Shown: piece after piece, positions 19,797 to 55,024 of the stretch
Layout: every line of letters begins with the position of its first letter
Numbering within the stretch: the stretch's first letter is position 1
Virus record (IMG/VR): IMGVR_UViG_3300042468_000945
Coordinates: 1 to 64,000 of that record
DNA from: a virus
Length of the DNA: 64,000 bases
Strand: one strand, 5' to 3'
Position numbers and translations under genes: made by a program
Notes under the pieces: generated by a model
What the model was told of the DNA's origin: nothing
Database searches by the model: none
The model's input: only the letters and a program-made list of their open reading frames with translations

Positions 19797-20942
19797 CTAC
19801 TTTCTTCTTCTAAAATTTTTCTTGGGGCTTTTAGATTCTTCAGTTGAAAATCTATTAGATCTTCTTCTTTCAAACGATTCTCTGTTTGGTTCCGAGAACA
19901 TTTCAAAAGTATTAGTTTCTTCGTTTTTGACTTCAATTTTAGGTTCAGACAATTTTAGAATCCTACCATTAACAATTCTTCTTGTTTCTGGGGTAATCTT
20001 TTTACCTGTCAAAAATGCGTCAACAACTGCTGTGGTGCTGTGGTGAATTGCAATTTCATCATGCGAATGAATTTCTACAATACAGTCAAAAGGAGGATTA
20101 CCTTCTCTTTCTTGAATAGTTTTTTGAGTTCCTCTCTTTGTTGCCATCTCGTCTGTGAGAGTAACGGTTTTTACACCACCAATAAGTTCTGAAATTGATT
20201 TGTTTCTAATAATATCTTCTATTGTATTACCGTGTGCTGTAACTATGATTTGTACTCCTCTTTGAGATATAGTTTGGGCGGCAAGGCTCTCAGTATTGGT
20301 AGAGACTTCATCAACAATAATAACTTGTGGCATATGGTTTTCAACAGCTTCGATCATTACTTCATGTTGGTTCTTACTTCGGGGTACTTGCAATCGTCTA
20401 CTCTTTCCAACTGCCAAGTGTGGAACATCTCCTTCTCCAGCAATTTCGTTTGATGTATCAACAATCACAACTCTTTTTTGCATTTCAACAGACAGAATCT
20501 TTGCAGCTTCTCTTAGCAAACTCGTTTTTCCTACGCCTGGTGGCCCTACAATTAATAGGCTCTTTCCTTCATGTAACAAATCTTCAATAAGTTTTGCGTT
20601 TCCAACGTGGGGTTTTCCAATACGAATAGTTAAGCCAATAATATCCTCGTTTCTATTAACAATGACACTTATTCGGTGAAGGGTACCATCAATACCACAA
20701 CGATTATCAATATTAGGTTTACTTAGGTTACTAAGTATGTCGTTAATTAACTTTCTATCTGTAAGGATGTCTGTCTCATAGGCACTATCATTTTCATATC
20801 TAAACTCAACAAACCTACCTAAATCAACAACAATTTCAATTAATGTGTCAATATCAGTAATGCTATCTGAGATTTGATTTGGTAAGGTATCAAGTAATAA
20901 CTCAATGTCAGCGTAAACTGCTTCGTCAAAATTAGGGTTCAT
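19797..20942 (-). CDS. ycf45: Ycf45-like AAA ATPase (SpoIIIAA-related)
   Basis: A 381-residue ATPase. From the ATG at 20942 (strong AAGGAAA before it; an upstream GTG at 20963 is possible) the order is a helical N-terminal region, GTLHRISVI, Walker A GPPGVGKTS (133-141), VVIVDTSNEIAGEGDVPH, then HQVMIEAVENHMP-like text, Walker B VIIVDEV, and VTLTDEMATKRGTQKT. These blocks follow the Ycf45 family of cyanobacteria and plastids closely, and more distantly the Firmicutes SpoIIIAA ATPase. The basic tail (ERRRSNRFS, KNFRRRK) replaces the usual R3H nucleic-acid-binding domain. Role in Ycf45 itself is not well known. Its presence hints at a cyanobacterial host. Confidence 0.9.
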   Translation of the reverse strand: MNPNFDEAVYADIELLLDTLPNQISDSITDIDTLIEIVVDLGRFVEFRYENDSAYETDILTDRKLINDILSNLSKPNIDNRCGIDGTLHRISVIVNRNEDIIGLTIRIGKPHVGNAKLIEDLLHEGKSLLIVGPPGVGKTSLLREAAKILSVEMQKRVVIVDTSNEIAGEGDVPHLAVGKSRRLQVPRSKNQHEVMIEAVENHMPQVIIVDEVSTNTESLAAQTISQRGVQIIVTAHGNTIEDIIRNKSISELIGGVKTVTLTDEMATKRGTQKTIQEREGNPPFDCIVEIHSHDEIAIHHSTTAVVDAFLTGKKITPETRRIVNGRILKLSEPKIEVKNEETNTFEMFSEPNRESFERRRSNRFSTEESKSPKKNFRRRK

Positions 20943-20982
20943 AAGTTTCCTTTGGTTTCCCACTTAAATAGGGGACTAGAAA

Positions 20983-22997: not shown

Positions 22998-23207
22998 CTA
23001 CACGCACATCACTATATCACTATCTAGTTGTAATAAATATTTTGCTTTCTTTCTACCTTTTGGGTAGGTTAAAAAATATTTATACTCGTAATAAGCTGAG
23101 TTATATTCCATCCACTCATGGACAGCACATTTTTCTCTGTCAATACTATTCTTTATATTGGCTAGATTTATATAACCAAGTTTAGTATTAATCCATTTTG
23201 AACTCAT
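22998..23207 (-). CDS. Small hypothetical protein (69 aa)
   Basis: ORF of 69 residues that starts 20 bases inside the end of the aminotransferase gene, suggesting coupling. Two parts: an N-terminal segment with WINTKLGYINLANI and a basic, Tyr-rich centre (SAYYEYKYFLTYPKGRKKAK). No family recognised. Confidence 0.5.
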   Translation of the reverse strand: MSSKWINTKLGYINLANIKNSIDREKCAVHEWMEYNSAYYEYKYFLTYPKGRKKAKYLLQLDSDIVMCV

Positions 23208-24255
23208 TAATTAACCTTACAATTTCTTTTCTTTGCTCTTTTGTTACCCAGAAACCATTTGGTATTGATATTTGAGTTTTGTCAAAATATTCTGTATTTG
23301 GAAGGTCAATCTTAGAATCTTTAAAGACTGTGTGTTTGTCGTTTCTTGCGTGGACTTGTGAAGTTGATACACCATTGATTTTCATGTAATCAATAAACCC
23401 ATCCCTGAGTTTTTGATTTTTTAATTGTAGTGTATAAATCCAATAATTACATGTTGGATCATACTCATGTAAAATAACATCTGAGTTTGTAATCTTATCA
23501 CAATAGTATTTAGCATTTTTTCTTGATTTGACAACTGCTTTCTTAGCATTTTCAATATTTCCTAAACCAATAGCTGAACCGACATCATGTGGTTGAAATT
23601 TGTATCCTGGAATTTTAATATCTTGTTTACAGCGGAAGGATTCGTTTGCATCACGATTTAATCCAAACCATCTCATAAGCTTGGCATTTTCATACTTATC
23701 TTGTGGAACCATTAATGCACCACCATCTACAGTAGTTAAGAATTTAATTGCTTGGAAGCTCCAGCAAATGTAGTCGCCACAGTTATCAGGATCAACGTAC
23801 AGGCAATGTGCGGCATCTTGAATAATAGGAATACCAAACTTCTTTAAAGCGTTGTAATCACAAAATCTTCCTGCCCAATCAACAGCAATAATTGCTTTGG
23901 TTTCTGGAGTTATTTTCCTTCCAACATCTTCTGGATCAATCAACCCAAACTCATTAATGTCTGCCCATATAATGCTTGCGTAATGGTGAAGAACAGGTAG
24001 GTTTGAGGCGGTGCAGGTCTGTGCAGTTGATATAACTTGTGTTCCTGGTTCAACCCCACAAAGAGTCAAAGCCATTGTTATTGCACTTGTACAAGAGTTA
24101 ACAGATAATGGTTTAACAGGAAGGTTTGGATTCAAAGCATAGAAAGCTTCTTCAAATTCTTCAACAACTTTTCCTTGTCCAATATATCCAGACTTAATTA
24201 CTTGATTAAGTAATTTACTTCTAGAATTCATGTTAACTTTAAATAGTGGTATCAT
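23188..24255 (-). CDS. DegT/DnrJ/EryC1-family sugar aminotransferase
   Basis: A 355-residue PLP-dependent enzyme that transfers an amino group to a keto-sugar nucleotide. Seen: GYIGQGKVVEEFEEAF at the start, NSCTSAITMAL (53-63), IIQDAAHC with D147 as the PLP pyridine partner, and SFQAIKFLTTVDGG in which K171 is the expected PLP lysine. Length is normal for the family. It overlaps the previous glycosyltransferase start-to-stop by a base. It implies the cassette makes or consumes an amino sugar. Confidence 0.9.
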   Translation of the reverse strand: MIPLFKVNMNSRSKLLNQVIKSGYIGQGKVVEEFEEAFYALNPNLPVKPLSVNSCTSAITMALTLCGVEPGTQVISTAQTCTASNLPVLHHYASIIWADINEFGLIDPEDVGRKITPETKAIIAVDWAGRFCDYNALKKFGIPIIQDAAHCLYVDPDNCGDYICWSFQAIKFLTTVDGGALMVPQDKYENAKLMRWFGLNRDANESFRCKQDIKIPGYKFQPHDVGSAIGLGNIENAKKAVVKSRKNAKYYCDKITNSDVILHEYDPTCNYWIYTLQLKNQKLRDGFIDYMKINGVSTSQVHARNDKHTVFKDSKIDLPNTEYFDKTQISIPNGFWVTKEQRKEIVRLINEFKMD

Positions 24256-24968
24256 TATTGTTTGTCTACTACATTATATGTGTTAGTTCTTCCACCTAGT
24301 TGGTCACTAAAAAATGCTTTGTACTGGGAGGTAATTGAATTAAAAGGACATAAACCTAAAGAATTATATAATTGATCATATATAGATGCATCTAAATTTC
24401 TTGTCCCTTGTGGGTAGTGTAATTGATTATCATTAAAAGCATTTATCCTATAACTTACTTGCGTAGAATCAACTGTACAACTTGGTATTAAATTATGGGT
24501 GTGGTTTAATCCATGACCTCTAGTTATATTATTATCTACTAATTCTCGATAAGTTTCTATATACGGGTCAAATGGAATTATATGTGAATAAGAATAGTTT
24601 ATATTAGGATTGTCTGTATAAAATTTATTGAGGTTTTCTAAATAGTCTGGAAGAAGTGCATCATCGTCACACAAACAAATAAATACATCTTCTGTAGAAG
24701 ATCTTATAGCTTCAGTCATAAACAAACCATGTCTACTACCGCCCTGTGTTTCTTTTTGTTCAATACTATCTTCAATGTAGATAAACTCAATTTGATCAAG
24801 GTAATCTTTTAAAACTTCTTCTACAATTGGTCTACCTTTGTTAGTAGAACCGTCATCAATAAATACTAATCGCCAATTTTTATATGTTTGATCTCTTATG
24901 GACTCTAGAGCATTTAGAAACATTTTGGGTCTCTCAAAATAAACTAAACAAATTAAAAATTTTAACAT
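24255..24968 (-). CDS. Family 2 glycosyltransferase
   Basis: A 237-residue GT-A enzyme. FIDDGSTNKGRPIVEEVL is the usual nucleotide-sugar binding block and CLCDDDALLPDYL contains the metal-binding DDD motif. It starts 7 bases within the end of the SDR gene and ends on the aminotransferase start (one-base overlap). No membrane segment, so it probably acts on a cytoplasmic acceptor. Donor and acceptor cannot be told by sequence. Confidence 0.88.
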   Translation of the reverse strand: MLKFLICLVYFERPKMFLNALESIRDQTYKNWRLVFIDDGSTNKGRPIVEEVLKDYLDQIEFIYIEDSIEQKETQGGSRHGLFMTEAIRSSTEDVFICLCDDDALLPDYLENLNKFYTDNPNINYSYSHIIPFDPYIETYRELVDNNITRGHGLNHTHNLIPSCTVDSTQVSYRINAFNDNQLHYPQGTRNLDASIYDQLYNSLGLCPFNSITSQYKAFFSDQLGGRTNTYNVVDKQ

Positions 24969-25585
24969 TGTCCACCATCTAATTTTAGTGTAGATGCATT
25001 AAAGTACTCTGTGTTTACAATAAATTCAATTGCATTACAAATTTCTTCTACATTTCCTAGTCTTTTTAATGGATTAGTTGATAATACTTTTTCAAGAATC
25101 TTTTCAGGTACTTTGTTTGTAAGACCACCATTAAAGTAACCAAGAGCAATTGAGTTTGCAGTTATACCATATTTAGCATTTTCTAATCCAATTGTCCTAG
25201 TAAGAGTTTCACAAAACTTCTTACCTGCGGCATAGATAGATGTACCTTTAATTGGATTATCTCCTAATATAGACGAGATATAAATAATTCTACCATACCC
25301 TTTAAGTTTCATGTAAGGTATACAAGCAGCACAAACATGAGAGTGACCAATAACATTTACTTGAATCATTTTCTCAATATCTGAATCCATTAAATTTGTA
25401 AATAGACCATCAATATTGATCGTTGCAAGGTTGATTACAATGTCATAGTCTAGTCCCATCTTTAATGGTTCTTGAATACTCATATCTGATCCAAAAGAAT
25501 CTACATGATATTTGTCTTTAAGAATATCGTAAACTTGTTTTCCTAATCCGCCCGTACCCCCAACTAGAAGAAGTCGTTTAGTCAT
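24962..25585 (-). CDS. Short-chain dehydrogenase/reductase
   Basis: A 207-residue SDR enzyme. NAD(P)-binding GGTGGLG lies at residues 9-15, the SSI of ISSILGDN (S104-S105) is at the catalytic serine place, and SIYAAGK gives Y118 and K122. The later segment NEKAKYG-like (LENAKYGITANSIALGYFNGG) is a common SDR pattern. It sits in the sugar cassette and may reduce or epimerise a nucleotide sugar; substrate unknown. Confidence 0.87.
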   Translation of the reverse strand: MTKRLLLVGGTGGLGKQVYDILKDKYHVDSFGSDMSIQEPLKMGLDYDIVINLATINIDGLFTNLMDSDIEKMIQVNVIGHSHVCAACIPYMKLKGYGRIIYISSILGDNPIKGTSIYAAGKKFCETLTRTIGLENAKYGITANSIALGYFNGGLTNKVPEKILEKVLSTNPLKRLGNVEEICNAIEFIVNTEYFNASTLKLDGGQC

Positions 25586-25718
25586 TATAAAACTCCCCGT
25601 ATTTAGGATCGAACTCAGTGATCCATAAAGGAATGTTTGTATTCTGAATTGTAGCTGACTGTAGTTCCCAGAAAGTTTCTGCTAATTTTATTTGACCCAA
25701 CCAATTAATGTAATTCAT
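25578..25718 (-). CDS. Tiny protein in the sugar cassette (46 aa)
   Basis: ORF of 46 residues (MNYINWLGQIKLAETF to YGEFYND) that exactly bridges the gap between the PhyH and SDR genes, overlapping the former by 14 and the latter by 8 bases. Overlaps at both ends are the rule for genes here, so translation is likely. No homologue recognised. Confidence 0.45.
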   Translation of the reverse strand: MNYINWLGQIKLAETFWELQSATIQNTNIPLWITEFDPKYGEFYND

Positions 25719-26619
25719 AGTCTCTTATATTTTTAGATTTAACATCTTTTAGTACGTAGTGTCCTTCTCGATAATCAGAATAAAAAGGAGTATAGTATTT
25801 TAATTTTGAATCATCAAAAGCAACGTGAGTAGCCTGGCTCCATCTTGTGCTTTCTGGATTTGTGATTTCTGACCCACCATGCAAAAGATTTGCGGCCCAT
25901 ATTAGTGCAGAACCTTTCTTACCTAAAAACTGTTCTTGTTTATATTGTTTAGCTTTAATCAAACTAGAAACAAAGTTCTCGTATTCAGTATAGTTATCTT
26001 TCTCTTGTTTATATTCTGTGTGAGCCATGTTTAAATCTTGAAACTCAAATATAGGTTCTTTATGTGATTTAGGGTAATAAACTAAAGGACCCTGTTCTGG
26101 ACCGATATCTTCTAAGGCAGTCCAAAAACCACACACCCACCTATGTGGCATAGAAGCAAAATGACAATGATCAGAGTGGGTCGGCTGATTACTACCTAAC
26201 TTAAAATTAATTGTTTGGAATGGCATAGCTGGTCTCCCATATAAAAACTCAATTATGCTCATAGCTCTGGCATTTTTTGCAAGATTTAAAACGTTTTGGT
26301 TCCACTTCCAAGCCTCAAAAATTCTTGGGCCATCGTTATAATGGAAATGACCTTCTTGAGTTTTTACTGCACCTTCCATGAGTTTATTGTCTAACTCTAA
26401 AACTAAGTCATCAATAAAAGTTTCCTCTAGATCTAAATCAATTACAGCATACCCATCAGAGTTAAAGTTTCTAGCTATTTTCTCTAATTCTTTAATATCA
26501 ACGTTAGTCGTGTTTTTTTGTTTTTCTTCTTCTAGTTTTACTTGTAGAAGGGTTTCAAAAAATGGTGATTCTACCCAAGGAATGTTTAGTGCTTCTGGGT
26601 CTATATTATAATTCTTCAT
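25705..26619 (-). CDS. PhyH-family Fe(II)/2-oxoglutarate dioxygenase
   Basis: A 304-residue oxygenase of the phytanoyl-CoA dioxygenase superfamily. The iron site is THSDHCHF (H148 and D150) with distal H247 in NLLHGGS, and R259 in STRWSQ would bind 2-oxoglutarate. All four key residues are present, so it is probably active. In bacteria such enzymes hydroxylate small molecules, sugars or lipids. Placement between SDR and acyltransferase-glycosyltransferase genes suggests a sugar or glycolipid substrate; that is inference. Confidence 0.85.
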   Translation of the reverse strand: MKNYNIDPEALNIPWVESPFFETLLQVKLEEEKQKNTTNVDIKELEKIARNFNSDGYAVIDLDLEETFIDDLVLELDNKLMEGAVKTQEGHFHYNDGPRIFEAWKWNQNVLNLAKNARAMSIIEFLYGRPAMPFQTINFKLGSNQPTHSDHCHFASMPHRWVCGFWTALEDIGPEQGPLVYYPKSHKEPIFEFQDLNMAHTEYKQEKDNYTEYENFVSSLIKAKQYKQEQFLGKKGSALIWAANLLHGGSEITNPESTRWSQATHVAFDDSKLKYYTPFYSDYREGHYVLKDVKSKNIRDYELH

Positions 26620-26620
26620 A

Positions 26621-27901
26621 TTAAAATCCTACTTTATATATGTGTGGTAATGTTAAATCAAAATTGTGTATGTGGTTGCATTGTGATTCGTGAGACATGT
26701 AATTAGAACAAAGTGGGGACACTCCCCTAAGATTTTCTATTGTCATACCGTGTTGGTAGTATATAGACGTAAATTTTTGTTCAATATATTCAAAGTCTCC
26801 ATAGCTAGTATTGTTGTTATGTGGTAAAGAACCTGTTTCTTTAGAAATAATATTTAAATTTTTAGTCGAAGCATAGCCACAACCCCCACCAGAGTGCATT
26901 CCTCCAACACAAGAAACTATAGGGGCTAAACTTACAAATCCGATATTAGGGGAAGATTCTAAAAGATTAATTGCTTCTTTAAACACACCCTCTCTCGTAA
27001 TAATAACATCATCCTCTAAGAAACAAAAGTAATCATAATCATTCTTATGTTTTTGATAAGCAAAATTATACCCAGCAAATGACCCACCTGTGTTTTCTCT
27101 GGTGTAACACAAATACTTTCCATTTTTTGAATTTGTGTTATTTAAAGAATCAACGTACAAATTACCTTCGTGAAATCCAGCTTGATTGTTAATTATAATT
27201 GTATCACAACTGACGCCAGGATCAATTTGTTCATCTGTATCAATATGGTGTTTCAGTAACTCCAATGTATTCTCGGGTGTGGTGGTATTGTTATTTCTTG
27301 GTCTTCTTGAACCAAAGTACGTTACAATAACTTTACAACATTTAGCATTATTATTCTTAGAAGTTTTTAAAATATTTTCTTTGTTTCTATCTTTTATGTG
27401 TTTTATTGGGTTACCAAACCAAATACTCCAAGGAGTTAATTGATTTTTAGTATATACAAAAGATTTTGCACCAATTGTACACCCAATAGGTAGTGTAACA
27501 TTTGGCATTACAATTACATCACTTGCAACTCCAGAGTAATCTTCAAATGTAATATCTCCTCTGTTTATTTTGTTACTACCCCAAAACTCATTAACAGGTC
27601 CAAAGTCCCCACTATAATCTTCGGAAGCACAAAATAACTTTGAACCATAACCAATAAAAGTCCAGTTACCTAAAGTTATTGTATGTTGATTTCCACCCCC
27701 GAGCACACAGTGGCTGGTTATTTGTATATTGTCTCCTGTCTTTAATCCTGTTGTTATCAAAGTAAAAGGATCAATTCGTACATTATTACCAAGAAAAACT
27801 TTACTTGGATTAGTAAAAATCACGTTTTTACCGATATAAACATTCTCACCACAGGAACCGAGTTGTGGTCTCCAATATTCAGTATCCCAGCCAATGCTCA
27901 T
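26621..27901 (-). CDS. Hexapeptide acyltransferase-glycosyltransferase fusion
   Basis: A 426-residue two-part enzyme. Residues about 1-190 form a left-handed beta-helix of hexapeptide repeats (IGKNVIFTNPSKVFLGNN, ITLGNWTFIGYG, VIVMPNVTLPIGCTIGAKS), as in sugar O- or N-acetyltransferases. Residues about 205-426 look like a GT-A glycosyltransferase: KVIVTYFGSRR start and CFLEDDVII carrying a metal-binding DD. Fusion of the two in one chain is notable. The HHTTP-like short linker (KTSKNNNAK) joins them. Flanked by the GNAT-like and PhyH genes. Products unknown. Confidence 0.8.
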   Translation of the reverse strand: MSIGWDTEYWRPQLGSCGENVYIGKNVIFTNPSKVFLGNNVRIDPFTLITTGLKTGDNIQITSHCVLGGGNQHTITLGNWTFIGYGSKLFCASEDYSGDFGPVNEFWGSNKINRGDITFEDYSGVASDVIVMPNVTLPIGCTIGAKSFVYTKNQLTPWSIWFGNPIKHIKDRNKENILKTSKNNNAKCCKVIVTYFGSRRPRNNNTTTPENTLELLKHHIDTDEQIDPGVSCDTIIINNQAGFHEGNLYVDSLNNTNSKNGKYLCYTRENTGGSFAGYNFAYQKHKNDYDYFCFLEDDVIITREGVFKEAINLLESSPNIGFVSLAPIVSCVGGMHSGGGCGYASTKNLNIISKETGSLPHNNNTSYGDFEYIEQKFTSIYYQHGMTIENLRGVSPLCSNYMSHESQCNHIHNFDLTLPHIYKVGF

Positions 27902-28290
27902 TATATATTTACCTCTAAGTAATTATTTCTTGTATTTGTTTTATATTGATCTGAAACTTGTTTGAGGAAATTTAAATTGTTTGACTCTAGATAAATTTTA
28001 TTAATTGAACCATATTCAATTGCTTTGGTTGAGCCAATTAAGAGTGGAATAATATCTTTGTTATAATCATCAGAAGATACATAACAACTAGCAACTACAG
28101 TATTAGGAGAATCAATAGGAGTTATAAACATAGCCCCCTGAACTTTTCCATCTATTTTTACTACATAAGAGAACTTTTGTGTTGTCACAAAATGAACCCA
28201 CTCAGTATAATTTAAAGAAGTGTTAAGCTTTTTGTGTATATTCTTTAAAGCACTATCGTTACAGCCAATTTTATCCAGTGTTATATTCAT
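27901..28290 (-). CDS. GNAT-like acetyltransferase (tentative)
   Basis: A 129-residue protein from the ATG at 28290; a longer upstream reading uses a non-optimal start within the GT9 gene. FSYVVKIDGKVQGAMFI and the VASCYVSSDDYNKDIIPLLI segment fit a short GNAT fold in which acetyl-CoA would bind after a strand pair, but the signature R/Q-x-x-G-x-G/A is not clear. It overlaps the previous gene by 20 bases. Function tentative. Confidence 0.45.
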   Translation of the reverse strand: MNITLDKIGCNDSALKNIHKKLNTSLNYTEWVHFVTTQKFSYVVKIDGKVQGAMFITPIDSPNTVVASCYVSSDDYNKDIIPLLIGSTKAIEYGSINKIYLESNNLNFLKQVSDQYKTNTRNNYLEVNI

Positions 28291-29140
28291 TTGAACCCCC
28301 AAATAATGGTTTAAGTAAAGGTGTAATAAAGTTAACATCAATATTTGTAACTGGCATATTAAGTTCAATTCCTAGTTGATTTGGAAATTGTGGTTTTGCT
28401 GATACTAACCAATTAGGTAAAGCACATGAAATAACAAGGAAATTTGCACCCACAGCAGCCGCTAAGAATCTTAGTCCTGTATCAACACTTAACACACCAT
28501 TAGATAAAGTCATTAAAGCAGCTATATGTTCAATAGGCTTACCGTACATTTTTGTATAGTTCCAATCACTAAACCTATCTTCTTCAAGTTCTTTTAATGA
28601 TCCCACTGCTACAGGTATAATTCCCATTCCATTCAAATAATCTGCAATCTGTTTCCAGTACATATTACTAAAACACTTGTTTGGTTTGTTTCCTTGGTCG
28701 TCATTATGTGAAGTACATGACCAACTATGTCTGCCAATTAAAATAAATGGTTTACCACCTAATTCTGTTTCAAAGATTTGTTTTGCGGCATCTAAATCTT
28801 CTTGTGTCGGAACATAAATATAATCCTTATTGATTAAAGGAATACTTAATTGTGAAGCAAACGCGTCTATCATAGGTACGTGTGCTTGTAAACCAACATC
28901 CATTGCTTTAACACAACTTAAAACTACATCTGATTCTTGTTTATCACCAATTAAAATATTATCAATGTAAGGATTTCTTGAATGAATTAGGGAACTTACA
29001 CTACCTTCTTTACACCTATAATTAATTTCTAAGTCTGGACGATATATTTTTAAATTCCTAATTGTAGGTGACTGCATAATAGCATCACCAATAAGATCAT
29101 CACTAAAGAATGTTAAAGATTTAATTAGTTCGTTATTCAT
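28271..29140 (-). CDS. Glycosyltransferase family 9 (heptosyltransferase-like)
   Basis: A 289-residue GT-B type enzyme. The start is set at the ATG at 29140, with GGAG six bases before it; a longer start would overlap the previous gene by 50 bases. DDLIGDAIMQSPTIRNLK is the family 9 N-terminal signature, and GVLSVDTGLRFLAAAVG the C-terminal nucleotide-sugar site. Family 9 enzymes add heptose or related sugars to lipopolysaccharide cores. In this phage it may act on host surface glycan or a virion component. Confidence 0.82.
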   Translation of the reverse strand: MNNELIKSLTFFSDDLIGDAIMQSPTIRNLKIYRPDLEINYRCKEGSVSSLIHSRNPYIDNILIGDKQESDVVLSCVKAMDVGLQAHVPMIDAFASQLSIPLINKDYIYVPTQEDLDAAKQIFETELGGKPFILIGRHSWSCTSHNDDQGNKPNKCFSNMYWKQIADYLNGMGIIPVAVGSLKELEEDRFSDWNYTKMYGKPIEHIAALMTLSNGVLSVDTGLRFLAAAVGANFLVISCALPNWLVSAKPQFPNQLGIELNMPVTNIDVNFITPLLKPLFGGSNEYNTG

Positions 29141-29930
29141 TAATTGCTCCAATAAATTTGGGTTCAAGTAAGCCAGGGACAACTAGTTCATTAGTAGGTT
29201 CCCACAGAAGCTCTAAATTAAAATTGGCTAACCACCCCAGGTCATGATTCCATGATTTACCTGCTTGGTGCTCTACACCAGGATAATTTACATATACTGT
29301 TTTAAACCCAGCTTTCCTAGCATCATTAGAAAATAGTCTATCACTTCCTATATGTGCAAGCCCTTTAAATGGTGCAAACTCTGGGTATGTGGTTGTTGGA
29401 CCACCTAAATCAGTTTCACAAAAGACACCAATCGTTTCAAAAACCTCTTTCTTAACACAGAACATATGTCCAGTTACATATCCAGGATCTTCTACATATG
29501 TTAATAATGGGTCGCCATGTTGAGGAGAATCAGTATACCCAGCAATACCAATAGTAGGATCATCTTCAAATGCTTTTAATAACATCTCAAAACAACCTTC
29601 TTTTAAATCACAATCACTATTAACAATAAAGTAGTGAGTTAATTCAGGGTCCCACATGTATAAATTTCTTATTCCAATATTAACAGTACGAGTGAATAAT
29701 TGTTGCTGTTTCCACGATACACCATAAAATTTACCATTTTTTTTAGTTTTTATTACAGCCATTGTCCTATCTAAAGTTTCTTGGTTTGATGCATCTTGTA
29801 CAGTTATACCTGTCATACCATACTTATTACTATAGTTTTCAACAATAAAAGATAAAGATCGTTCTACATAATCAGGAGCATTATGTATAGGCATTACCCA
29901 ACCGCAATTACTTAATTTGTTATTATCCAT
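29133..29930 (-). CDS. Family 2-like glycosyltransferase
   Basis: A 265-residue GT-A enzyme. CGWVMPIHNAPDYVERSLSF is the N-terminal nucleotide-sugar fold; FIVNSDCDLKEGCF contains a DxD metal site; later YVTGHMFCVKKEVFETIG and the acidic LGGPTTTYPEFAPFKG region match GT2 chain-adding enzymes. It precedes the GT9 gene by an 8-base overlap. First glycosyltransferase of the sugar cassette in transcription order. Confidence 0.82.
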   Translation of the reverse strand: MDNNKLSNCGWVMPIHNAPDYVERSLSFIVENYSNKYGMTGITVQDASNQETLDRTMAVIKTKKNGKFYGVSWKQQQLFTRTVNIGIRNLYMWDPELTHYFIVNSDCDLKEGCFEMLLKAFEDDPTIGIAGYTDSPQHGDPLLTYVEDPGYVTGHMFCVKKEVFETIGVFCETDLGGPTTTYPEFAPFKGLAHIGSDRLFSNDARKAGFKTVYVNYPGVEHQAGKSWNHDLGWLANFNLELLWEPTNELVVPGLLEPKFIGAINE

Positions 29931-31721: not shown

Positions 31722-32014
31722 TATTTTACCCAGCTGTGCTCATATTTTTCATGAAGAGTTTTTACATTCTGGAAGAGGTGGTTTTCTAATTTCTGTGCTG
31801 ATTCAATACTCTTTCTTTTTGTAATAAACCAGTATAGGCTCTGTAGGAATGGTTTTGGAAGTGGAGGTTGATTAGGAATAGTATTTTGATTTAAAACTGT
31901 TGTTAATGTTTCTAACAACAGTTCTGCTTCACTATACTTTTTTGCAACCATTAACCTAGTAATTTGAGAATTGATTTTATTAATATATTCAACAACACGA
32001 CGGCTATTAATCAT
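31721..32014 (-). CDS. Helical hypothetical protein (97 aa)
   Basis: ORF of 97 residues from the ATG at 32014, overlapping the co-chaperonin stop by 8 bases (an upstream TTG is possible). It is basic and helical (AKKYSEAELLLETLTTVL). No domain recognised. One-base overlap to the next gene. Confidence 0.5.
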   Translation of the reverse strand: MINSRRVVEYINKINSQITRLMVAKKYSEAELLLETLTTVLNQNTIPNQPPLPKPFLQSLYWFITKRKSIESAQKLENHLFQNVKTLHEKYEHSWVK

Positions 32015-32600
32015 TACTAACAAGTTCTCCGTAAATATCTGTGTGCATTATGAGGTATCTTTTTTCATTGAAACCTAATGGCTCCAAATCAACAATTAAA
32101 GTATTATATGGGTTAAACACAACAGTAGAGCCTACTGATACTTGGTGCTCAATTGGATTACCTGTTGCATCAGTCCAACCATAACCTAAACTCTTTACAA
32201 CACCCAAAGCAGGTGGGACAGTTTTTGAGTCTGGCATTAAAATTAAAGAGTCTTCTTCTTTTGTTTCAATCTTTTCAATTTCAATGTAGTTACCCAAAGG
32301 TTTGAGGGTTAAGTTTTCTAAGTCTATTTTACACATTATATCTAATTCAGAGGCAACATAAAAAGGATCAGAATTTGGTAATTCAACAACTTCTTTTCCG
32401 TGTGCCATTACATAAACTGTATCTTCTTGTTTCAGTTGAGAGGGTTGAATCTTACCATTAAAGTCAGGGAAGCCAGGACCAACATCTAAAACTTTACCCC
32501 ATCTATATTCTTTCTTTGCACTGTCAATACTAACAATGTCAGGGTTTGCGTCGTCTATAAGATTAAATGTCAAATAATTATTAACAGGTTTGATTTTCAT
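32007..32600 (-). CDS. groES: Tandem GroES-like co-chaperonin (two Cpn10 domains)
   Basis: A 197-residue protein of two consecutive Cpn10 folds. Domain 1 (about 2-94): MKIKPVNNYL, mobile-loop IVSIDSAKKEYRWGKVLDVG, GFPDFNG, and DTVYVMAHGKEVVEL. Domain 2 (about 95-197): LKPLGNYIEIEK, SLILMPDSKTVPPALGVVKS, then a long insert to TDIYGEL. The loop tips IVS and LIL occupy the place of the IVL of GroES. A fused pair resembles chloroplast Cpn20/21 rather than the one-domain T4 gp31. GroEL is encoded about 21 kb away in the same leftward unit, so the two likely form a phage folding machine. No duplicate stop or frameshift. Confidence 0.85.
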   Translation of the reverse strand: MKIKPVNNYLTFNLIDDANPDIVSIDSAKKEYRWGKVLDVGPGFPDFNGKIQPSQLKQEDTVYVMAHGKEVVELPNSDPFYVASELDIMCKIDLENLTLKPLGNYIEIEKIETKEEDSLILMPDSKTVPPALGVVKSLGYGWTDATGNPIEHQVSVGSTVVFNPYNTLIVDLEPLGFNEKRYLIMHTDIYGELVSND

Positions 32601-53338: not shown

Positions 53339-55024
53339 TTATTCCTTTGAATCTGGTAAATTATATACCAATGCTTCTGTAGTTAGGATAGTACCAGCCA
53401 CACTTGAAGCACTTAATACAACCTGTCTACTAACAAATGCAGGGTCAATGATTCCAAAATCAAACATATCACCGTACTCTCCAGTTCTGGCATTAAAACC
53501 ATACGTAGATTGTTTAGCTAGTGCCAGATTCTTTTCCTTATTAGGTCGTCCCCTCTCCCCAGTCTTTTCATTGTGTTCCAAGACTTTTTGATATACAACA
53601 GAACCATTATAACCAGCATTAGTTGCAATAGCAAGAAGAGGTGCCTTTAGGGTATCTAAGAATAGATTATAACCTACCTCAACATCACCATCCTTGAACT
53701 TTCTTGTTTGATTTGCCTTAACAACTTGTGCCGCTCTAATAAAGGACATCCCACCACCAACAACAATACCATTCTTTAAAGCAGTCTTTACAGCAGCAAC
53801 AGCATCTTCAAATCTGTACTTCTTTTCTTTCATTTCTGCTTCAGTGTTTGCACCAATACTGATAATACAAATACCACTTGTAAGTTTTGCTATTCTAAGT
53901 TCTAAGTACTCTTTCTGGAAAGGAGGTGTTTCTGGATCATTTTGCTTTTCCTTCAACTTATTTACATGAGCAGCAACAACCTCATCAGATGCAGAGCCAA
54001 TTAAAGTTGTAGTTTCTAAATCAATAATGATTTTCTTCGCCTTCCCTAATGAACGGAAGGATACATTATTAACCCTTGTACCTGATTCTTTTCTAATAAA
54101 TTCAGCACCAGTTATAACTGCCAAGTCTTCATACCAATCCTGAACCCTAGCACCATAGCCAGGAGCCTTAACACAAGCAAACATGTAACCTCTTTCTGCC
54201 CTATTCTTTGCCAATGTCATAAAAGCATCTTGACTGGTAGGTACGTTTCCAATAATCAAAAGATTACCTTCATGTTTTCTTGGGTTTTCTTTTAAGTATA
54301 CAGTAAGGAAGTCTGCCATTTCAGGTGCTGTCTTAATATCATCTTCAAAAAGCAAGATATCAACATCTTCCATAACGCACTCTAACTTGTCACGATCTGT
54401 AATAAAGTAAGGACTGAGGAGACCACTATCAAAATTCATGCCCTTACTATGCTTTAAAACCGTTTCTAGACCTCCTGGATGGAAAGTAACAAAACCATTA
54501 CCCCCTACCGAAGTAAACGCATCAGCGACTGTTTTACCAACATGTTCATCGTTACCAGAAATAGTAGCAAGATTCTCAATTACAGCATAATCCTCAGCTG
54601 TAATTGGTTTAGCCATTGAGTCAATTACTTCAACAACATCCCTAGCAGCTTCTTCAATACCTTCTTTAATTCTAATACCGTTTCTATTTAGGCCAACTTG
54701 CTTGTTACCTTCGTGAACCACTGCTTGGGCTAACACAATACTAGAGGTTGTCCCATCACCTACAGTATCATTAGTTCTAATTGCAGCTTGTTTTAGTAAT
54801 TGTGCTCCAATAGATTCAGCTGGGTCTGCTACCTTAATTGATCTTGCAACAGTTACACCGTCTTTTGTGACAATTGGCGGAACCCAAACATTGTCAGATT
54901 CAATAACAACATTAGAACCACCAGGACCTAACGTAACTGATACTGCTTTAGCAACCTTATCTACGCCTCTAATAATAGCCTTTCTAGCGTCATCTGAGTA
55001 CATTGTCTCGTTCTTATTATTCAT
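53339..55024 (-). CDS. groL: GroEL-like chaperonin (full length)
   Basis: A 561-residue chaperonin of the GroEL family. Conserved blocks: TLGPGG (31-36), TKDGVTVARSI, DTVGDGTTS (86-94, ATP site), the apical-domain region, and FEDAVAAVKTALKNG with the catalytic Asp equivalent to E. coli D398. VVGGGMSFIRAA follows. The length is near that of host GroEL, but the C terminus (VYNLPDSKE) lacks the GGM repeats. It lies among tail genes, 27 bases from the preceding gene in the opposite direction of reading and two from the RuvC-like gene. The phage also encodes a tandem GroES. Probable client: large beta-rich tail proteins. Confidence 0.93.
   Translation of the reverse strand: MNNKNETMYSDDARKAIIRGVDKVAKAVSVTLGPGGSNVVIESDNVWVPPIVTKDGVTVARSIKVADPAESIGAQLLKQAAIRTNDTVGDGTTSSIVLAQAVVHEGNKQVGLNRNGIRIKEGIEEAARDVVEVIDSMAKPITAEDYAVIENLATISGNDEHVGKTVADAFTSVGGNGFVTFHPGGLETVLKHSKGMNFDSGLLSPYFITDRDKLECVMEDVDILLFEDDIKTAPEMADFLTVYLKENPRKHEGNLLIIGNVPTSQDAFMTLAKNRAERGYMFACVKAPGYGARVQDWYEDLAVITGAEFIRKESGTRVNNVSFRSLGKAKKIIIDLETTTLIGSASDEVVAAHVNKLKEKQNDPETPPFQKEYLELRIAKLTSGICIISIGANTEAEMKEKKYRFEDAVAAVKTALKNGIVVGGGMSFIRAAQVVKANQTRKFKDGDVEVGYNLFLDTLKAPLLAIATNAGYNGSVVYQKVLEHNEKTGERGRPNKEKNLALAKQSTYGFNARTGEYGDMFDFGIIDPAFVSRQVVLSASSVAGTILTTEALVYNLPDSKE

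What the first reader, a model, noticed from the sequence alone, without database searches (positions are those of the whole stretch)
32007..32600. Phage-encoded tandem two-domain GroES, paired with a phage GroEL
Residues 2-94 and 95-197 of the 197-residue protein each show the Cpn10 plan, with mobile-loop tips IVS and LIL at the GroES IVL place. Fused Cpn10 pairs are known from chloroplast Cpn20/21; the phage co-chaperonins I recall (T4 gp31 type) are single-domain. The same leftward unit encodes a full-length GroEL (53339-55024). The two together would be an autonomous phage folding chamber whose lid is built from two-domain subunits. The loops differ (IVS versus LIL), so the two halves may have diverged roles.
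Basis: partly seen in the sequence, partly recalled or inferred. Interest (0 to 1): 0.85.

Follow-up and report, generated by a model that had tools for sequence, protein, structure and literature searches.

The report
Two-domain phage lid for GroEL
A virus of bacteria carries its own protein-folding chamber plus a lid made of two fused GroES-like halves, an arrangement reviews give only to chloroplasts; it is real, and I found that a few other phages have such double lids too.

Summary
The ORF at 32007-32600(-) encodes 197 aa with two Cpn10 domains. Each half scanned alone passes Pfam's cut-off (31.4 and 46.1 bits; cut-off 21.1). An AlphaFold2 model (pLDDT 80.8, pTM 0.78) has the two-domain chloroplast co-chaperonin Cpn23 as its best PDB match over the full length. 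A full-length GroEL with intact ATPase residues lies 20.7 kb away on the same strand. No other Cpn10 is detectable in the ~131 kb held of this phage. Most likely it is a Cpn20-type lid for the phage's own GroEL. Oligomer number and the "autonomous" claim are untested. It is not unique: Flavobacterium phage MaF61 encodes a 187-aa two-domain Cpn10 next to its GroEL, plus a third, single Cpn10; and a large, very diverged ~187-aa double-Cpn10-like family (phrog_13932) sits upstream of terminase in Cellulophaga/Flavobacterium phages. None of 33 Cpn10-bearing IMG/VR groEL contigs and none of 120 bacterial genomes had one. Unexpectedly, the GroEL lid groove is altered: Y199L and V264K, both shared only with MaF61 among about 120 GroELs inspected. 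The host is unknown; a cyanobacterial host is unsupported.

The parts
32007..32600 (-). Two-domain (tandem Cpn10) co-chaperonin, 197 aa
32322..32600 (-). N-terminal Cpn10 domain, residues 1-93; mobile loop about four residues shorter than in GroES
   Evidence: Pfam 31.4 bits alone; alignment A3; AF2 domain, loop residues 12-16 and 21-26 at low confidence
32010..32321 (-). C-terminal Cpn10 domain, residues 94-197
   Evidence: Pfam 46.1 bits alone; alignment A4; AF2 domain mostly pLDDT above 90
32529..32537 (-). N-domain mobile-loop tripeptide IVS (residues 22-24)
   Evidence: Aligned to the IIV/IIP-D motif of 30 Cpn10s
32235..32243 (-). C-domain mobile-loop tripeptide ILM (residues 120-122), followed by P-D
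   Evidence: Aligned to IIV-PD of 18 Cpn10s
53339..55024 (-). Phage GroEL (Cpn60), 561 aa, catalytic D52/D87/D398 kept; apical groove altered (L199, A234, A263, K264); no GGM tail

Best explanation
The gene encodes a Cpn20-type co-chaperonin: two GroES barrels fused head to tail, each with a mobile loop. Three or four copies would form a ring of six to eight barrels that caps the seven-fold apical face of the phage's own GroEL, enclosing phage proteins (probably capsid or tail proteins) for folding. Shown here: two Cpn10 domains, a two-domain predicted fold, a co-encoded GroEL with intact ATPase residues, and no single-domain Cpn10 in the ~131 kb held. Inferred: that it caps this GroEL, that both loops bind, and the ring stoichiometry. 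The seven-fold mismatch is met either by leaving one site or one barrel unpaired, as chloroplast and apicoplast Cpn20 can do, or by adding one single-domain GroES from the host.
For: Both halves pass Pfam's cut-off separately. The AF2 model has the two-domain Chlamydomonas Cpn23 and Cpn20 chains (7ekq) as its full-length PDB matches, among GroES structures. GroEL is full length with D52, D87, D398, G415 and D495 intact. In 33 of 45 IMG/VR GroEL relatives a Cpn10 is present, so a phage GroEL normally comes with its own lid; here the tandem protein is the only candidate. In MaF61 the same architecture lies immediately upstream of GroEL. Groove changes at GroES-contact sites 234 and 264 (contacts per PMC3514286) fit a lid that has diverged together with its chaperonin. 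PMC5780408 reports that even-domain lids (Cpn20, 6- or 8-domain concatamers) work with seven-fold GroEL.
Against: The two genes are 20.7 kb apart, not an operon. The N-domain loop is short and its tripeptide ends in Ser, so that half may bind weakly. GroEL groove changes (L234A, V263A, V264K) could equally mean weakened lid binding. The phage genome held is incomplete, so a single-domain Cpn10 could be missing. No binding or oligomer data exist, and no complex was modelled. The AF2 alignment mixed single Cpn10s and the diverged phrog_13932 family, which biases it toward this fold.
Confidence: 0.68

Rival explanations
1. A gp31-like lid for the host GroEL: the double co-chaperonin retunes host GroEL for phage substrates, and the phage GroEL works without a lid or with host GroES.
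For: T4 gp31 acts so (established knowledge), and the model matches gp31 (1g31, E 6.6e-4). Some phage GroELs (AR9, cr108) lie in records with no detectable Cpn10.
Against: The phage encodes its own full GroEL. The altered GroEL groove is unlikely to suit a canonical IVL-loop GroES.
Confidence: 0.13
2. Only the C-terminal domain is a working loop-bearing unit; the N-domain is a spacer with a degenerate loop, so the ring offers alternating binding and non-binding barrels.
For: The N half scores lower (31 vs 46 bits), its loop is about four residues shorter and its tripeptide is IVS; the loop is the least confident part of the model.
Against: The N loop keeps two hydrophobic residues and the conserved D after the tripeptide; without close tandem relatives, selection on it cannot be measured.
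Confidence: 0.12
3. The Cpn10 fold has been put to another use, e.g. in virion assembly or packaging, as may hold for the terminase-adjacent phrog_13932 family.
For: A large diverged double-Cpn10-like family sits directly upstream of terminase, apart from groEL, in phages that also carry a standard groES-groEL pair.
Against: The window protein does not match that family's profile (-0.4 bits), keeps recognisable mobile loops, and has no groES partner gene that would make it dispensable.
Confidence: 0.05
4. Artefact: two groES genes joined by mis-assembly.
For: Only one record covers the locus; the overlapping record of the same phage does not reach it.
Against: One open frame with no stop; the halves are only 26% identical, so this is no repeat collapse; the same architecture occurs in an isolated phage, MaF61, sequenced at about 8000x.
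Confidence: 0.02

Closest known systems
Chloroplast/apicoplast Cpn20 (Cpn20, Cpn21, Chlamydomonas Cpn20 and Cpn23)
   Same: Two Cpn10 domains head to tail, ~200 aa; best full-length PDB match of the model (7ekq_Q, 7ekq_R)
   Different: 19-20% identity; encoded by a phage beside its own GroEL; no plastid link; N loop shorter
Flavobacterium phage MaF61 ORF64 (PQ858689.1 37807-38370)
   Same: 187 aa, two Cpn10 domains (Pfam 59.6 bits, two stretches), phage with own GroEL; its GroEL shares L199 and K264
   Different: Adjacent to groEL; genome carries a third single Cpn10 (ORF117); neither protein finds the other by tblastn; GroELs only 27% identical and not sisters in the tree
phrog_13932 'co-chaperonin GroES' (Cellulophaga phi38:1 gp089, Calle, Flavobacterium elemo; hundreds in IMG/VR)
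   Same: ~187 aa, two Cpn10-like halves (hhalign E 7.5e-7 and 9e-4), in phages with GroEL
   Different: Upstream of terminase and extra to a single groES in most records checked; mobile loops not recognisable; profile does not match the window protein
T4 gp31 type phage co-chaperonins
   Same: Phage-encoded Cpn10 fold; weak structural match (1g31)
   Different: Single domain, 111 aa, used with host GroEL
Phage groES-groEL pairs (e.g. Flavobacterium immuto, 33 IMG/VR contigs)
   Same: Phage GroEL with phage Cpn10
   Different: Single-domain lid of ~95 aa, directly next to groEL in the distinct cases checked

Membership tests
Cpn10/GroES (PF00166) | Score over the curated cut-off | tested here: met
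   Both halves separately, 31.4 and 46.1 bits vs 21.1
Cpn10/GroES (PF00166) | GroES beta-barrel fold | tested here: met
   AF2 pLDDT 80.8; Foldseek hits to GroES structures, E down to 3e-6. N-domain less confident than C-domain
Cpn10/GroES (PF00166) | Hydrophobic mobile-loop tripeptide | tested here: inconclusive
   C: ILM met; N: IVS, two of three hydrophobic
Cpn10/GroES (PF00166) | Ring assembly and nucleotide-dependent capping of GroEL | not testable with these tools
   Needs biochemistry
Cpn20-type (two-domain) co-chaperonin | Two Cpn10 domains in one chain | tested here: met
Cpn20-type (two-domain) co-chaperonin | Common descent with plastid Cpn20 | not tested
   No plant sequences were at hand for a tree; 19-20% structural-alignment identity only
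T4 gp31 type | Single-domain lid, no phage GroEL | tested here: not met
   Two domains, own GroEL
phrog_13932 double Cpn10 | Match to family profile | tested here: not met
   Not listed by hmmscan; -0.4 bits against a 74-member profile
Group I chaperonin GroEL (ORF 53339-55024) | Full-length Cpn60 with ATPase residues | tested here: met
   phrog_5725 426 bits over 4-559; D52, D87, D398, G415, D495
Group I chaperonin GroEL (ORF 53339-55024) | Canonical GroES-binding groove residues (Y199, L234, V263, V264); typical, not strictly defining | tested here: not met
   L, A, A, K; canonical or conservative in nearly all of 28 phage and 80 bacterial GroELs

The most novel reading that the evidence does not exclude
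Two-domain GroEL lids have arisen or persisted more than once in phages, and in at least two of them (this phage and MaF61) lid and chaperonin have co-diverged at the contact itself (GroEL Y199L and V264K; MaF61 loops GLEL, GIEI, DIEL with a central Glu), giving folding chambers orthogonal to the host's. In MaF61 and the phrog_13932 phages a double plus a single Cpn10 could give exactly seven domains (3x2+1), as in chloroplasts.
Probability: 0.28. Interest if true: 0.8.

Novelty: new variant of a known kind. Interest (0 to 1): 0.6.

Why it matters
A 2018 review describes co-chaperonins of two tandem Cpn10 domains as unique to chloroplasts (PMC5780408). Finding them in phages gives simple systems, one of them isolated with its host (MaF61 and Flavobacterium), in which to test how an even-numbered lid fits a seven-fold ring, whether a single-domain partner completes it, and whether phages evolve chaperonins insulated from the host's.

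Tried and rejected
tblastn of the tandem protein in 50,697 phage records (none) and pattern scans of IMG/VR with the tandem protein (none), the terminase (only another contig of the same phage) and the MaF61 tandem (none). AF2 on the single sequence was useless (pLDDT 29). hhalign of the two half-profiles shares rows and is circular, so not used. A tree of Cpn10 domains is too poorly supported to say whether tandems share one origin. The GroEL tree leaves the window GroEL on a long, unresolved branch. Exclusive linkage of a polar residue 264 to double lids was rejected: cr108 has R and no Cpn10 found, Calle3 has E, YC has T. A Bacteroidota host inferred from A-rich starts was dropped: SD-like motifs are enriched (30/76 vs 11 expected). 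A hidden second Cpn10 in the phage: the best other hit is E 0.025 in a 47-residue frame.

Full report
Observation. The window holds an uninterrupted ORF at 32007-32600 on the minus strand, 197 aa. Pfam Cpn10 matches it in two stretches, 1.7e-20 overall; cut in two, the N half scores 31.4 bits and the C half 46.1 bits against a gathering score of 21.1. PHROGs and PDB sequences (best chain the two-domain Cpn23 of 7ekq, hit in both halves) agree. The halves are about 26% identical to each other, so this is an old duplication or fusion, not a recent repeat.

Structure. A single-sequence prediction failed. With an alignment of 13 phage and 17 bacterial single Cpn10s and 35 diverged double-Cpn10-like phage proteins, AF2 gives pLDDT 80.8 and pTM 0.78, with two domains, the C-domain mostly above 90 and the N-domain loop below 50. 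Foldseek against the PDB ranks 7ekq_Q (Cpn23) first over 206 columns and 7ekq_R (Cpn20) fifth, the rest being single GroES and, further down, T4 gp31. Against predicted viral proteins the best match is an unnamed 183-aa protein (A0A516LTQ1) over 200 columns, with a 186-aa protein and a 200-aa 'chaperonin cpn10' of Cellulophaga phage phi18:3 also matched nearly full length.

The phage. The window is 1-64000 of a 118,098-base IMG/VR record. A second record is 100% identical over 41,005 bases and extends 13 kb further. The phage has a contractile-tail type gene (Baseplate_J), family-A-like DNA polymerase, UvsX-like recombinase, class Ia RNR, rIIA/rIIB, an intein-bearing terminase and at least 12 tRNAs. 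Its nearest portal proteins are 27-34% identical, in Bacillus, Moorella and Acinetobacter phages. The host is unknown. Nearly all genes from about 16 to 111 kb run leftward, so groES and groEL are co-oriented but 20.7 kb apart.

GroEL. The 561-aa protein covers the whole family (phrog_5725, 426 bits), is about 40% identical to E. coli GroEL, and keeps the ATPase residues. Four hydrophobic groove positions are changed: Y199L, L234A, V263A and V264K. Among 28 distinct IMG/VR phage GroELs and 80 bacterial ones none has L199 or K264; MaF61's GroEL has both. L234, L237 and V264 are the GroES IVL contacts (PMC3514286). This suggests co-divergence of lid and groove, but polar residues at 264 also occur in other fast-evolving phage GroELs and the tree is unresolved, so I hold it as a lead.

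Is it unique? No. Of 45 IMG/VR contigs with a GroEL relative, 33 carry a Cpn10, all single-domain (open frames 71-142 aa), next to groEL in the distinct cases checked. Of 120 bacterial genomes of one phylum, about 140 Cpn10 matches include no two in one frame. But Flavobacterium phage MaF61, an isolated myovirus, encodes a two-domain 187-aa Cpn10 (ORF64) directly upstream of its GroEL and a third single Cpn10 (ORF117); the paper on it mentions no chaperonin in its main text. Cellulophaga phages phi38:1 and Calle and Flavobacterium elemo phages carry a ~180-195-aa protein (phrog_13932, annotated co-chaperonin GroES) just upstream of terminase or its equivalent. hhalign finds Cpn10 in its C half (E 7.5e-7) and weakly in its N half (9e-4). 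Nine of 12 such records checked also hold GroEL, and 8 of 10 a single Cpn10 of 84-103 aa. The window protein does not belong to that family.

Mechanism. The best reading is a Cpn20-type lid for the phage's own GroEL. The symmetry problem is the known one for Cpn20: 6- or 8-domain lids work on seven-fold GroEL (PMC5780408), and in chloroplasts doubles and singles co-assemble. This phage shows no single Cpn10 in 131 kb, whereas MaF61 and the phrog_13932 phages have one, so the first would use an unpaired site or host GroES and the others could build 3x2+1. Binding, stoichiometry and the function of each loop remain inferred.

Novelty. The domain, the fold and the two-domain plan are known; their occurrence as a phage lid beside a phage GroEL was not found described in the papers searched, though database entries exist. 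I call it a new variant of a known kind.

Noticed in passing
PQ858689.1 37807-38370 (L093:1924-2487) and 91554-91925 (L100:2055-2426): Flavobacterium phage MaF61 has a two-domain Cpn10, a GroEL and a third single Cpn10; all three loops have hydrophobic-Glu-hydrophobic tips (GLEL, GIEI, DIEL) while its GroEL has K264, hinting at a swapped contact.
   Followed up: partly
L104-L183; L099:1242-1826; L101:2501-3043; L102:2501-3064: A very large ~187-aa double-Cpn10-like family lies upstream of terminase in phages that mostly also carry groEL and a single groES; function unknown.
   Followed up: partly
window 53339-55024: GroEL apical groove altered (Y199L, L234A, V263A, V264K) and inter-ring sites 109, 452 and 461 changed; single- versus double-ring state is open.
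   Followed up: partly
window 32334-32336 (codon 89): An in-frame ATG lies at the end of the N-domain; internal initiation there would give a ~109-aa single Cpn10 that could supply an odd seventh domain. No clear Shine-Dalgarno motif upstream.
   Followed up: no
L005:4641-8087 (record 105640-109086): Terminase large subunit of 1148 aa is interrupted by intein splicing and LAGLIDADG homing-endonuclease domains.
   Followed up: no
L005:15427-16491 and L082:11627-14745: Cluster of at least 12 tRNA genes near the end of the record.
   Followed up: no
IMGVR_UViG_3300042288_001682 (L082-L084): A second contig of the same phage, 100% identical over 41,005 bases, extends the genome by 13 kb.
   Followed up: yes
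window 23188-29930: Block downstream of the groES gene with DegT aminotransferase, two GT2 glycosyltransferases, SDR, PhyH dioxygenase and hexapeptide transferase: probable glycan-making cassette.
   Followed up: no
window 19797-20963: AAA ATPase whose best Pfam match is sporulation protein SpoIIIAA (45 bits), unusual in a phage.
   Followed up: no
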